Shown piece by piece: positions 53,779 to 56,756 of a DNA stretch of 57,252 bases (position 1 is the first letter of the stretch; the number at the start of each line of letters is the position of its first letter). Below the pieces are notes generated by a model that was given only the letters and a program-made list of their open reading frames with translations, had not been told where the DNA came from and searched no databases. Where the stretch lies: assembly GCA_030532245.1 (NCBI GenBank), contig JAUNLN010000010.1, positions 7,014-64,265 on the forward strand. Reading direction: 5' to 3'. The position numbers and the translations under genes were made by a program. The stretch comes from Actinomycetaceae bacterium (GTDB taxonomy: Bacteria; Actinomycetota; Actinomycetes; Actinomycetales; Actinomycetaceae).

Positions 53779-53851
53779 GGGGCTATGGCGCAGTTGGTAG
53801 CGCGTCTCGTTCGCAATGAGAAGGTCAGGGGTTCGAATCCCCTTAGCTCCA
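53779..53851 (+). tRNA. tRNA-Ala(CGC)
   Basis: 73-base cloverleaf. Acceptor GGGGCTA (53779-53785) pairs with TAGCTCC (53844-53850). The D stem is GCGC/GCGC. The anticodon stem TCTCG/TGAGA holds the loop TTCGCAA, giving anticodon CGC (GCG codons). The T arm is AGGGG-TTCGAAT-CCCCT. CCA is not encoded. A terminator follows 6 bases later. The gene marks the left edge of the accessory region. Confidence 0.95.
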
Positions 53852-53857
53852 CAATCA

Positions 53858-54021: not shown

Positions 54022-54503
54022 ATGACTCCGAGGAAGAAGGCAGTTGGTGCGGCAGGGCGCGAAATCGCCTTAATTCTTCTAGATGTCGCGAAAGAGCGCG
54101 GCGTGTCGTACAGGTCGCCAAGCGCTACGACTGGATTGTCGCTTAACGACTCGGAATCGTCTTTCGAAACGGAGGCACCGGCGCATTGATCGACGAGGTG
54201 TATACAATAGCGCAGGCTTCGGGCACGAGCGCGAACGCGGCGGTACGTGAGGCGGAGTCTCGTATTGCGGGGCCTGGCGGTGTGGGGGACGGTACCGCAA
54301 TGTCTGTGGAGTCTGGCAATGCTGGTGAGACTAGTGGCGGCGTTGGCGCTGATGAGCAGGCTGGCCGGGAGCGTGTGTTTGAGGTTTATAGGTCGGAGCT
54401 TTCGAGCGTGGATAAATCGGGTATGGTCGCGTTGCGGGGGAGTATAGATCCGTATGAAGATTTAGGTGAAGAATCCCAAGACAGGGCCGGGGAAGTGGAG
54501 TGA
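54022..54503 (+). pseudogene. HTH regulator interrupted by a frameshift
   Basis: Two frames read as one protein. The first (54022-54189) gives MTPRKKAVGAAGREIALILLDVAKERGVSY...ATTGLSLN and then drifts into unconvincing sequence to a stop. In the +2 frame, from about 54147, the line continues RLGIVFRNGGTGALIDEVYTIAQASGTSANAAVREAESR and runs to 54503, the normal second half of an XRE/Cro-type HTH domain with a polar tail (SIDPYEDLGEESQDRAGEVE). A single missing base near 54142-54150 explains it. The C-terminal frame overlaps the toxin start by 4 bases, so the original gene headed the toxin operon. Sequencing error or a separate TTG start at 54186 are alternatives. Confidence 0.55.
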
Positions 54504-54979
54504 AGACGCTGAAGCTGGTGCAGCCTCCCGGAATCAGGTCTACAGGAGGGGTACACGTACCGATTGAGGTTGATGCAACCAAGACCAGAGGGGAATCCGA
54601 CTTTGTGCGTGACCTGAAGTATTTCTGCAAGAAGTACGGGCTTGAGCACGCATACAAATCAATAGCTATCGAACTCACGGCGATCGTGGAACGCGCAAAA
54701 GAAGGTACGCTAACTTATGATGAGCGCTCTAGCAAATGTGGGACCGTTTGCCAGATCAAATCTCAGCCAGGCGTGTTGGAAGCGCGTCTCGAAACCACTA
54801 CCTACGGTGACAAGTCTTTATACGTTCGCCTGTTCTTCTCTGAACCTGAGGATTTTGAACTAATCCTCCTGCTGGGAACTTTATTCAAAGAGGATTTCCC
54901 GGTCGGGAAAGACCAACAGAACCTGCATGCTGGAAAATGTCAGGCCAGAGGTGACGCTTGGATAACAAGTCGCACGTAG
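54500..54979 (+). CDS. RelE/HigB-like toxin of a TAC module
   Basis: 159 residues. The C-terminal ~75 residues fit the RelE/Gp49 (HigB) mRNA-interferase fold: VLEARLETTTYGDKSLYVRLFFSEPEDFELILLLGTLFKEDFP, where a typical HigB reads 'lyRilYf...i.LLhgF.KK...P', followed by a helix rich in A/R/K (NLHAGKCQARGDAWI). The first 55 residues are an unusual helical extension. The GTG start overlaps the upstream regulator stop (GTGA). An XRE antitoxin gene and a SecB-like gene follow, the toxin-antitoxin-chaperone order of mycobacterial HigB1-HigA1-Rv1957. Toxicity is inferred from family and context. Confidence 0.65.
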   Translation: MKTLKLVQPPGIRSTGGVHVPIEVDATKTRGESDFVRDLKYFCKKYGLEHAYKSIAIELTAIVERAKEGTLTYDERSSKCGTVCQIKSQPGVLEARLETTTYGDKSLYVRLFFSEPEDFELILLLGTLFKEDFPVGKDQQNLHAGKCQARGDAWITSRT

Positions 54980-55090
54980 CGCTTGCATAAGGCGATTCGT
55001 GGCATATTATGACACTGAACGGCTCGTTATGTCGTTATAGGCATATTCTGTCCATTTGTGGAATATACAGAGAATGCGAGGAGAGCTGAG
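54980..55090 (+). promoter_or_regulatory. antitoxin upstream region with direct repeats
   Basis: This gap is AT-rich and has the direct repeat GGCATATTATG (55001-55011) and GGCATATTCTG (55040-55050), 39 bp apart. A related inverted sequence GGAATATACAG follows near 55060. It probably gives the antitoxin its own promoter and self-repression site, separate from the toxin promoter upstream. Confidence 0.4.
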
Positions 55091-55450
55091 ATGGATATTT
55101 TGGAGGAGTTTGGGCTCAATCCCAACGATCCCTACGTGCAAGCATCCAAGCGAATGGCGCACAATCGTTTCGTGGTCGCAAACTCATTAAGGGCAGTGCG
55201 AGTAGCAAACGGTATTAGCCAGCAAGAAGCCGCCCGCCGCATGGGGACCGATCAAGCTGCTATCTCCCGCATGGAGTCAGGCGAACGCGACCTGCGAATG
55301 TCCACGCTACGCCGCTATGCAGATGCGATACACGCAGAAGTAGCGATCAATGTTTCCAATACGCAACTCAGTGTTAGAAGCGGGATGCCCATAGAAAACG
55401 TATGGGAGAAAGACGGCTCTGCGTATGAGCTGCAACTGCAAGGAGCCTGA
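55091..55450 (+). CDS. XRE-family antitoxin (HigA-like) with C-terminal extension
   Basis: 119 residues from ATG 55091, chosen because AGGAG lies 7 bases upstream; GTG 55058 would add 11 residues. A central HTH_3 domain reads NSLRAVRVANGISQQEAARRMGTDQAAISRMESGERDLRMSTLRRYADAIH. It is followed by about 35 residues ending SGMPIENVWEKDGSAYELQLQGA. In TAC systems the antitoxin carries a short C-terminal chaperone-addiction segment recognised by the SecB-like partner; this tail with Trp, Tyr and Leu is the candidate. The stop is 2 bases before the SecB-like start. Confidence 0.82.
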   Translation: MDILEEFGLNPNDPYVQASKRMAHNRFVVANSLRAVRVANGISQQEAARRMGTDQAAISRMESGERDLRMSTLRRYADAIHAEVAINVSNTQLSVRSGMPIENVWEKDGSAYELQLQGA

Positions 55451-55452
55451 AG

Positions 55453-55914
55453 TTGGAACGTAAAAAGAGTGATCTCAAAGAAGCCCTTGCCAAATCCAAG
55501 TTCGAGATGAAGGAAGTCGCAGGCAAGCGTCTAAAAGAACAGGCACCGCAGTCTATCGCAGCAAACGTGAATTTCGAGGTCAACGTCAAGCCCCTACCAG
55601 AGGGCATCGCGGTTGGAATGCAAATCGAGTTAACCAGTGAGGTCGCCGAACTAAAAGTAGTAGGCAACTGCGACTTGCACCTAACGCAAGGCTGGGAGGT
55701 ACGTAAAGATGTTGCTAACGCTTTCCTCGCAGATGACTGCGTAGCCGTTATGTACCCGCCTTTGCGTCAGGCTCTATCTCTGCTGAACTACCAGCTCGGA
55801 CTGCCGCACCTTCTCTTACCTCCTCAGCTTAGTGAAGAAATTACTCAAGGCTTGGTTGGTTCTTACGAGGGCAATGACGTGCTCAGATATGAAGCTGCTC
55901 AAACTAGTATCTAA
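55453..55914 (+). CDS. SecB-like chaperone of a TAC module
   Basis: 153 residues. After a charged N-terminal helix the protein has alternating beta strands (ANVNFEVNVKPLPEG, VGMQIELTSEVAELKVVGNCDLHL). It then has the hallmark SecB C-terminal block MYPPLRQALSLLNYQLGLPHLLLPP, comparable to 'lfPyaRe.isdl..rggfPpl.L.P' of SecB and to the YPYIREYVYDLTGRLALPPLTL region of Rv1957. Actinobacteria lack a general SecB, so a SecB-like gene beside a toxin and antitoxin is best read as a TAC chaperone that holds the antitoxin until folded. TTG 55453 has AGGAG 7 bases upstream. Confidence 0.72.
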   Translation: MERKKSDLKEALAKSKFEMKEVAGKRLKEQAPQSIAANVNFEVNVKPLPEGIAVGMQIELTSEVAELKVVGNCDLHLTQGWEVRKDVANAFLADDCVAVMYPPLRQALSLLNYQLGLPHLLLPPQLSEEITQGLVGSYEGNDVLRYEAAQTSI

Positions 55915-56091: not shown

Positions 56092-56120
56092 ACCCCGGCA
56101 TTTCAACGAAATGTCGGGGT
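56092..56120 (+). terminator. terminator after the TAC operon (near-copy of the tRNA-Ala terminator)
   Basis: A 13-bp stem, ACCCCGGCATTTC (56092-56104) with GAAATGTCGGGGT (56108-56120), loop AAC, one wobble, then TTCCCC. Core CCCCGRCAT...ATGTCGGGG matches the hairpin at 53858. The 55915-56162 gap otherwise holds nothing recognisable. Confidence 0.65.
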
Positions 56121-56162
56121 TTCCCCTTACCTCAACCGAAGTTGGTTGGAGGCTATGAGGCT

Positions 56163-56756
56163 CTACTCGAAGATGCTGCGGTCGACTTCTTCGAGAAGGT
56201 CTTCTCTGTTGATCGCTTGAGCTAGTCGTGCTAGGTGTGGCCAGTAGACTTTTTCTAGCTTGATGTCGTTTTTGGCTGCATAATCGAGTGCAACCCACAC
56301 AAGGTCTTCCACCTGGTAATCCTCGTTGTGGAGAGGCGCCAGAATCCTTTTGCGTTCCTCTTCGTTGGGTACTTGCAAAAGTACTTCGCGCAGCACATCT
56401 GCCGTGGCCCTTTTGAGAGATGGTTCAAGTTGGGTGGCCTCATCGCCGTCTTCAAAAATGTTGAAGTCTACGTATTCGAACATGACGTCGCCGTAATCTA
56501 TTGAAGCGCCTAATTCTAGGACTCCCGGTAAATAGGATTTGTCGAGCTTCATGCCTTTTTCGCTCGCGTACGCGAGTGCTCCCCACATCGTGTCTTCTAG
56601 GTGAGGCTCGCCGCAGTAGTAGATAGCCATAATCCGGCGGCGGTCTCGGTCATTGTCAGCTCTTGGAATGATGTCACGCAGAATATCTGCCGCTAGACCT
56701 GTTTCAGAGGGGTCGGGTGGAGCGGTGGGATCCATGTCCGCAATCGTAAAGCCCAT
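56163..56756 (-). CDS. uncharacterised protein made of two ~80-residue repeats
   Basis: 197 residues, acidic and helical, no family recognised. Residues about 22-103 and 117-197 are repeats of each other: ADILRDIIPRADNDRDRRRI / ADVLREVLLQVPNEEERKRI; LEDTMWGALAYASEKGMKLDKSYLPGV / VEDLVWVALDYAAKNDIKLEKVYWPHL; and both end in a 'D.NIFE / DRSIFE' motif. A paralogue begins at the right window edge with identical last residues, so the gene is tandemly duplicated. Start may be ATG 56756 or ATG 56735; neither has a good RBS. Recently duplicated, repeat-built small proteins are sometimes immunity proteins, but no toxin is seen. Confidence 0.75.
   Translation of the reverse strand: MGFTIADMDPTAPPDPSETGLAADILRDIIPRADNDRDRRRIMAIYYCGEPHLEDTMWGALAYASEKGMKLDKSYLPGVLELGASIDYGDVMFEYVDFNIFEDGDEATQLEPSLKRATADVLREVLLQVPNEEERKRILAPLHNEDYQVEDLVWVALDYAAKNDIKLEKVYWPHLARLAQAINREDLLEEVDRSIFE
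56173..56238 (-). repeat. left copy of a 66-bp (minimum) direct repeat
   Basis: Identical to 57187-57252, where the window ends, so the true repeat is longer. It corresponds to the 3' ends of two tandem paralogous genes about 1 kb apart and indicates recent duplication or gene conversion. Confidence 0.9.

What the first reader, a model, noticed from the sequence alone, without database searches (positions are those of the whole stretch)
54500..55914. Probable toxin-antitoxin-chaperone (TAC) module next to tRNA-Ala
Three consecutive genes read as a RelE/HigB-like toxin, an XRE antitoxin with a C-terminal extension, and a small protein with the SecB C-terminal block (MYPPLRQALSLLNYQLGLPHLLLPP). 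This is the order of mycobacterial HigB1-HigA1-Rv1957. The chaperone here is shorter, the toxin has an extra ~55-residue N-terminal region, and the likely addiction tail (IENVWEKDGSAYELQLQGA) is very short. If true, it is a divergent TAC branch outside mycobacteria.
Basis: partly seen in the sequence, partly recalled or inferred. Interest (0 to 1): 0.78.

Follow-up and report, generated by a model that had tools for sequence, protein, structure and literature searches.

The report
Divergent toxin-antitoxin-chaperone module in Actinomycetaceae
Three adjacent genes most likely make a bacterial growth-stopping toxin, its antidote, and a helper protein that the antidote needs to survive; it is a distant branch of a known kind of system, and it matters because the same genome also holds a copy without the helper.

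Summary
In detail: genes at 54500-54979, 55091-55450 (corrected start) and 55453-55914. Libraries give the toxin no credible match and SecB only below Pfam's cut-off, so I used relatives. I read 41 operons with this toxin family in the same class; 38 have a third gene directly after the XRE antitoxin. Profile-profile comparison links 19 third proteins (window left out) to canonical SecB (89%, E 2.5e-6), the window protein to those 19 (96%, E 5e-9), and the toxins more weakly to HigB/Gp49 (33-56%); 0 of 100 column shuffles reach the SecB or HigB scores. Twelve further third proteins link only weakly. A second pair in the same genome (toxin 62% identical) has no third gene, and its antitoxin is alike only up to the tail. 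13 of 32 antitoxins with a third gene end in Ala. The cassette is accessory: one congener shows the tRNA-Ala site without it. Best reading: HigBA-SecB-type TAC module, a new variant of a known kind. Structure prediction was off; folds, toxicity and chaperone dependence are untested.

The parts
53779..53852 (+). tRNA-Ala (CGC); upstream border of the insert
   Evidence: ARAGORN; Rfam tRNA 70 bits
53857..53895 (+). terminator-like hairpin, copy 1 of a 39-nt direct repeat (79%) flanking the cassette
   Evidence: one copy only in congener L081
54022..54186 (+). short ORF in the insert, no relative among the 1937 ORFs held; probably not part of the module
54186..54503 (+). 105-aa ORF whose stop overlaps the toxin start; no significant relative among the 1937 ORFs held, no Pfam match
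54500..54979 (+). putative toxin, 159 aa, HigB/Gp49-like core with a family-specific N-terminal region
   Evidence: relatives; hhalign to mixed Gp49/HigB
54593..54967 (+). stretch of the toxin aligned to HigB/Gp49 (residues 32-156; invariant E94, R110, E115, K130, Q140 in 20 aligned toxins)
54980..55090 (.). toxin-antitoxin gap; in 8 of 18 gaps scored it holds a significant inverted repeat (possible operator), not in the window
55091..55450 (+).
   Evidence: Pfam HTH_3 47 bits, cut-off 23; start
55337..55447 (+). C-terminal tail of the antitoxin (last 37 residues after the HTH domain), putative chaperone-addiction tail
   Evidence: likeness to the chaperone-less copy stops near its beginning; tail survey
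55453..55914 (+). SecB-like chaperone, 153 aa, TTG start 2 nt after the antitoxin stop
55750..55824 (+). SecB-type C-terminal block (residues 100-124)
   Evidence: sequence; Pfam SecB alignment 28-124
56092..56130 (+). terminator-like hairpin, copy 2 of the flanking repeat
56163..56756 (-). 197-aa gene at the downstream border; its homolog follows the tRNA in congener L081

Best explanation
A tripartite toxin-antitoxin-chaperone (TAC) module of the HigBA-SecB kind, in an extended branch found across the class Actinomycetes. The first gene makes a RelE/HigB-like toxin, most likely a ribosome-dependent mRNA-cleaving enzyme. The second makes an XRE antitoxin that binds the toxin and probably represses the operon. 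The antitoxin's C-terminal tail is unstable by itself, and the SecB-like third protein binds and shields it. When the chaperone is drawn away (for example by unfolded exported proteins or phage proteins) or is lost with the DNA, the antitoxin is degraded and the toxin stops growth. Shown here: gene order, coding constraint, relatedness of the third protein to SecB by profile, the XRE domain, a missing tail in chaperone-less copies, accessory insertion. Inferred: RNase activity, repression, tail binding, degradation, trigger.
For: Third protein: Pfam SecB E 0.044 over residues 28-124; PADLOC PD-T4-9_C (that PD-T4-9 is CmdTAC is recalled) E 0.014, with similar weak hits in L012 and L026 and L046, whose third protein also hits Pfam SecB at E 0.013; rank 3 after L019 and L076 among ORFs other than the nine used, for a profile of 9 canonical SecBs on 1937 ORFs, E 0.011; hhalign window alone to SecB 54% E 1.3e-4, to 19 relatives 96% E 5e-9, those relatives to SecB 89% E 2.5e-6, with the window 92%; 0 of 100 column shuffles reach the last two scores. 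Toxin: 34 relatives without the window against a mixed Gp49/HigB profile 56% E 1.1e-4, with the window 33% E 4.5e-4, 0 of 100 shuffles each; relative L046 hits Pfam Gp49 E 0.084; invariant E94, R110, E115, K130, Q140 in 20 aligned toxins. Third gene after the antitoxin in 38 of 41 operons read. Antitoxin to third gene -23 to +5 nt in 12 of 12 measured. In the same genome the C41 copy lacks the third gene, and antitoxin likeness ends at residue 103 of 130, before the tail. 13 of 32 antitoxins with a third gene end in Ala, against 3 of 35 toxins and 3 of 32 third proteins.
Against: The libraries searched give neither the toxin nor the third protein a match at a cut-off. The toxin link is moderate and depends on the target profile: Gp49 alone 3.7% (with window) and 12.8% (without), HigB-like alone 6.5% and 2.5%, under 1% in the first run; HMMER saw no significant link. 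In one search one unrelated pair reached 5.3%. No fold was predicted. Twelve of 32 third proteins link to the SecB-like group only at 12-34% and to SecB at 0.1%, although 0 of 100 shuffles reach the 12% score. L028 has a long antitoxin tail (by eye) but an unrelated third gene. The chaperone-less L016 tail still holds a Trp. The window's toxin-antitoxin gap has no significant inverted repeat, and a motif typed from relatives is absent.
Confidence: 0.85

Rival explanations
1. A plain two-gene HigBA-like toxin-antitoxin pair, with an unrelated or only loosely coupled SecB-like gene behind it that serves protein export or general folding.
For: Two-gene versions exist (L016 in the same genome, L013), so the pair can stand alone. 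Published TAC chaperones can also replace E. coli SecB (PMC5105189, section 8).
Against: The third gene follows within -23 to +5 nt of the antitoxin in 12 of 12 operons measured, and a third gene is present in 38 of 41 read. Tails are 36-69 aa with a third gene (27 of 32 measured) and 28 and 15 aa in two pairs without it.
Confidence: 0.08
2. A three-gene toxin-antitoxin system whose first protein is not a RelE-type RNase but another kind of toxin, with the rest as in a TAC (overlaps the best explanation).
For: CmdTAC shows that TACs can carry quite different toxins (PMC11618068, passages). The HigB link of the toxins is moderate. A chaperone of this branch also sits behind a different pair, PADLOC PDC-M06A/B, on a Rhodococcus plasmid (L043).
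Against: The alignment to Gp49/HigB spans 101-103 columns in order and places the invariant E, R and K on the E-x-R, R and K positions. L046 hits Pfam Gp49 directly, though weakly.
Confidence: 0.15
3. A decayed or chance arrangement: an HTH regulator between two unrelated small genes.
For: No library names the first or third protein; the third protein alone found only itself in 213 family genomes.
Against: Conserved order in distant genomes, codon-position pattern of selection, open frames in the window.
Confidence: 0.01

Closest known systems
HigB1-HigA1-Rv1957 TAC of Mycobacterium tuberculosis (from passages and sections of PMC5105189, PMC6377645, PMC9098466)
   Same: Order toxin, XRE antitoxin, SecB-like chaperone; antitoxin with a C-terminal extension carrying Trp and Tyr.
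   Different: Window toxin below every library cut-off; tail 37 aa against about 45.
Gp49-type TAC-like operon in L076 (unnamed actinobacterium)
   Same: Same order of toxin, HTH and SecB-like gene; its third protein is found by both the canonical SecB profile and the profile of this branch.
   Different: Its toxin is recognised by Pfam Gp49; the window's is not. The Pfam SecB search of 394 class genomes did not list its third gene.
CmdTAC (PD-T4-9), E. coli
   Same: SecB-like chaperone that stabilises an antitoxin; weak hits of this branch's chaperones to PD-T4-9_C; antitoxin with an Ala-rich ClpXP-type end (passages).
   Different: CmdT is an ADP-ribosyltransferase; nothing of that kind is seen for the window toxin.
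PDC-M06A/B candidate defence pair followed by a chaperone of this branch, Rhodococcus plasmids (L043 tested; L044, L045, L048 alike by sequence or annotation)
   Same: Chaperone related to that of L026 (37% identity), third in the operon; the gene before it ends in -SSYALAV or -SSYALAI (L043-L045).
   Different: The first two genes belong to another family (L043).

Membership tests
HigBA-SecB TAC | Operon order toxin, antitoxin, chaperone | tested here: met
   Window; third gene in 38 of 41 operons read
HigBA-SecB TAC | XRE/HTH antitoxin of HigA kind | tested here: met
   HTH_3 47 bits against cut-off 23
HigBA-SecB TAC | Third protein homologous to SecB | tested here: met
   hhalign 54% alone, 92% with 19 relatives, 0 of 100 shuffles for the latter. 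Pfam cut-off itself not reached, 14.1 of 26 bits; TAC chaperones absent from PF02556 are published (PMC4257090, passages)
HigBA-SecB TAC | SecB fold and tetramer | not testable with these tools
   Structure prediction off
HigBA-SecB TAC | Toxin of the RelE/HigB (Gp49) family | tested here: inconclusive
   33-56% by hhalign against a mixed profile, 0 of 100 shuffles; 2.5-13% against single profiles; no library match for the window toxin
HigBA-SecB TAC | Antitoxin C-terminal extension absent from chaperone-independent homologs | tested here: met
   Shorter or different in 2 of 3 chaperone-less operons (L016, L013); L028 keeps a long tail
HigBA-SecB TAC | Toxin inhibition needs the chaperone | not testable with these tools
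   Needs expression experiments
CmdTAC | ADP-ribosyltransferase toxin CmdT | tested here: not met
   No such family in Pfam, PADLOC or NCBIfam for the window toxin
Solitary export SecB | SecB gene not tied to a toxin-antitoxin pair | tested here: not met
   Starts 2 nt after the antitoxin stop

The most novel reading that the evidence does not exclude
This is a separate, Actinomycetes-wide class of TAC in which a portable unit, made of a SecB-like chaperone plus an antitoxin tail with a built-in ssrA-like protease tag at its very end, has been joined to at least two unrelated toxin-antitoxin cores (this HigB-like one and PDC-M06) and lost or never gained in copies such as C41; the tag makes the antitoxin self-destruct unless the chaperone covers it, and phage or export proteins that occupy the chaperone set the toxin free.
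Probability: 0.3. Interest if true: 0.7.

Novelty: new variant of a known kind. Interest (0 to 1): 0.5.

Why it matters
No toxin scanned got a Gp49 or RelE match above Pfam's cut-off, and no third protein of these operons scanned got a SecB match above it, so such modules in Actinomyces, relatives and some plasmids easily go unlabelled; in the two plasmid records whose annotation I read, toxin and chaperone are called hypothetical protein. One genome holds a chaperone-bearing and a chaperone-less copy of the same toxin-antitoxin pair that differ in the tail. That is a natural experiment on how an antitoxin becomes, or ceases to be, addicted to a chaperone, which published work studied with engineered chimeras.

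Tried and rejected
Single-sequence searches with the window's third protein found no relative in phages, plasmids, viral contigs or genome contigs, and only itself in 213 family genomes. The window toxin found none in plasmids or phages; toxins L012 and L003 and alignment A4 none in viral contigs; toxins L012 and L023 none in plasmids. The L046 toxin, found by way of its chaperone, matches 16 plasmid records. PDB sequence searches gave nothing I could use; the best profile hit was a designed protein at E 0.0065. HMMER found no significant link between the toxins and Gp49. The first hhalign run with fewer toxins gave under 1% to Gp49; the 33-56% came with more toxins and with the third of three target profiles I made (gp49, hig, mix), so some choice was involved. 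The split of third proteins into gA (12) and gB (19), the window apart, was made by eye, partly from the result; gB holds near copies (L025/L099, L012/L101). Of 41 operons, one search used 35 toxins (L004, L005, L008, L015 as near copies, L109 short, L114 left out) and 32 third proteins (L004, L005, L008, L015, L009 broken and L114 left out; L016, L013, L028 have none of this kind).

Operator: inverted repeats in the toxin-antitoxin gap are significant (p below 0.05, single-base shuffles, uncorrected, relatives not independent) in 8 of 18 gaps scored, not in the window or L016, and upstream of the toxin in 0 of 14; the L026 gap was too short. A motif typed from relatives was not found in the window. 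The upstream ORFs 54022-54503 were considered as a further part and rejected for lack of relatives.

Full report
Observation. The antitoxin start is better placed at ATG 55091, because 9 of 13 aligned relatives have MDI or MDL there (I had trimmed L016 to that start) and a ribosome-binding site precedes it. The third gene starts at TTG 55453, 2 nt after the antitoxin stop, with AAGGAG at 55440-55445. The window's genome is 1.8 Mb in 48 contigs. Its family contains Actinomyces: four loci with equal contig lengths came back as A. bowdenii, A. gerencseriae, A. johnsonii and A. ruminis, so it is an unnamed member of the Actinomycetaceae.

What the libraries say. The antitoxin is a clear HTH_3 protein (47 bits, cut-off 23). 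The toxin has no credible match. The third protein matches Pfam SecB at E 0.044 over residues 28-124, below the cut-off, PADLOC PD-T4-9_C at E 0.014, PHROG 21664, of unknown function, at E 5e-4, and nothing in NCBIfam. So the libraries only hint.

Relatives. The toxin was found in 14 of 213 family genomes (single sequence), 7 of 394 class genomes and 21 of 396 order genomes, the own genome counted each time and the sets overlapping. I read 41 distinct operons: 15, 6 new (4 of them from outside the order), 18 new, and 2 on plasmids (L046 Curtobacterium, L079 Clavibacter; 2 of the 16 records). In 38 a third gene follows the XRE antitoxin; among these L009 is broken in antitoxin and third gene, and L109 has a short toxin frame. 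Three lack it: L016, L013, and L028, whose next gene is of another kind. Twenty aligned toxins share invariant E94, R110, E115, K130 and Q140.

Chaperone. With a profile of nine canonical proteobacterial SecBs the window protein (E 0.011) comes third in a set of 1937 ORFs, the nine themselves left aside, after L019, which passes Pfam's SecB cut-off, and L076, the third gene of a TAC-like operon with a Pfam-recognised Gp49 toxin. The Pfam SecB search did not list L076's gene. A profile of eight third-gene relatives that excludes the window gives the window E 2.5e-6, L019 4e-5 and L076 2.3e-4. With 19 relatives, hhalign gives 89% (E 2.5e-6) to SecB; the window alone gives 96% (5e-9) to the relatives and 54% (1.3e-4) to SecB. 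None of 100 column-shuffled versions reached the score of the relatives against SecB, with or without the window; the window-alone scores were not shuffled. Unrelated profile pairs stayed under 1%; in the smaller run the highest reached 5.3%. Another 12 third proteins, those of Actinomyces among them, link to the first group at 12-34% and to SecB at 0.1%; 0 of 100 shuffles reach the 12% score. So 20 of 32 third proteins compared are SecB-like by profile, and 12 are probable at best.

Toxin. Against a mixed Gp49/HigB profile the toxins score 33% with the window and 56% without, over 101-103 columns, 0 of 100 shuffles reaching either. The alignment puts the invariant E94, R110 and K130 on the E-x-R, R and K positions of the Gp49 proteins. 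In the mycobacterial TAC toxin a catalytic Lys, K95, lies at the beta4-alpha3 loop (PMC9098466, passages); that K130 is its counterpart is inference. Against Gp49 alone or HigB-like alone the scores were 2.5-13%, and HMMER saw no significant link. I call this probable, not shown. The N-terminal region with its nearly invariant Arg13 is a family feature.

Tail and addiction. In the same genome, contig C41 carries a second copy: toxin 62% identical, antitoxin 70% over residues 8-103 of 130, then no clear likeness in the tail, and an aldo/keto-reductase-like frame (named by eye) where the third gene would be. L013 also lacks both. Tails measured after the HTH domain are 36-69 aa in 27 of the 32 antitoxins with a third gene (5 not measured), 37 in the window, against 28 (L016) and 15 (L013) without; 23 of those 27 contain Trp and all 27 an aromatic residue, but the L016 tail has a Trp too. 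In the published system Trp108, Arg110 and Tyr114 of the tail bind the chaperone (PMC6377645, passages), and removing the tail makes the antitoxin chaperone-independent (PMC5105189, section 5). The window tail holds one Trp and, seven residues on, one Tyr. 13 of 32 antitoxins with a third gene end in Ala, against 3 of 35 toxins and 3 of 32 third proteins; relatives are not independent. L104, L105, L106 and L116 end in SDFDLAN, SDFGLAG, NDFALTS and SDFALGA, reminiscent of ssrA tags (recalled). CmdA, like other known TAC antitoxins, ends in a ClpXP signal (PMC11618068, passages). L028, with a long tail and no SecB-like third gene, is against a strict rule.

Shuffling and mobility. Relatives of the L026 chaperone lie on 24 plasmid records of Rhodococcus, Curtobacterium and Clavibacter. 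In Rhodococcus L043 the two genes before it match PADLOC PDC-M06A and B (E 3e-4 and 4e-10), so the chaperone is not tied to one toxin. The window cassette lies between two terminator-like repeats of 39 nt (79%). Of 7 congener tRNA loci compared, L081 (G005) shows the clearest empty site: tRNA-Ala, a single such hairpin, then a homolog of the 56163-56756 gene and no module; L084 also has tRNA and that homolog without the module; the others have other neighbours or end at a contig edge. None of the 10 congeners has the toxin or the third gene. The exact repeat pattern occurs at just these two places in the held contigs of the own genome, with a diverged copy upstream of the C41 pair. I saw no recombinase among the ORFs of the insert.

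Comparison with what is known. TAC systems with HigBA, MqsRA, HicAB and CmdTA cores are published, as are TAC chaperones outside PF02556 (PMC4257090, passages). Searches for toxin-antitoxin with SecB and Actinomyces or actinobacteria, and for two of HigBA, SecB, Actinomycetales (15 of 34 papers listed), showed no title or abstract start that describes this branch; supplements and Sala 2013 (not held) were not seen. The kind is known; the branch seems undescribed in what I saw. Hence new variant of a known kind.

Noticed in passing
G000 contig C41, L016:1481-2375: Second toxin-antitoxin pair of the same family in the same genome, without chaperone and with an unlike antitoxin tail.
   Followed up: yes
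window:53857-53895 and 56092-56130: Two terminator-like 39-nt repeats flank the cassette; congener L081 has one, so the site next to tRNA-Ala is an insertion place.
   Followed up: partly
L012:1818-1852 and L015:1819-1851: Long inverted repeat between toxin and antitoxin genes with matching changes in both arms in two related genomes; a likely operator or hairpin.
   Followed up: partly
L043-L045 and L048, Rhodococcus plasmids: Chaperone of this branch behind a PDC-M06A/B-like candidate defence pair (L043 tested); the gene before the chaperone ends in an ssrA-like -SSYALAV or -SSYALAI in L043-L045.
   Followed up: partly
L046 and L079, Curtobacterium and Clavibacter plasmids: The same three-gene module on plasmids (toxin and chaperone annotated hypothetical protein); on pCS1 (L079) a ParB-family partition gene lies nearby.
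   Followed up: partly
L019:1065-2001: SecB-like gene directly after an HTH gene, a possible antitoxin-chaperone pair; a toxin upstream was not looked for.
   Followed up: no
L076:376-1884 (- strand): TAC-like operon with a Pfam-recognised Gp49 toxin, HTH gene and SecB-like gene in an unnamed actinobacterium, useful as a reference.
   Followed up: partly
L017 and L018: SecB genes of alphaproteobacterial look on very short contigs (5143 and 3097 bases) of two actinobacterial assemblies, probably contamination.
   Followed up: no
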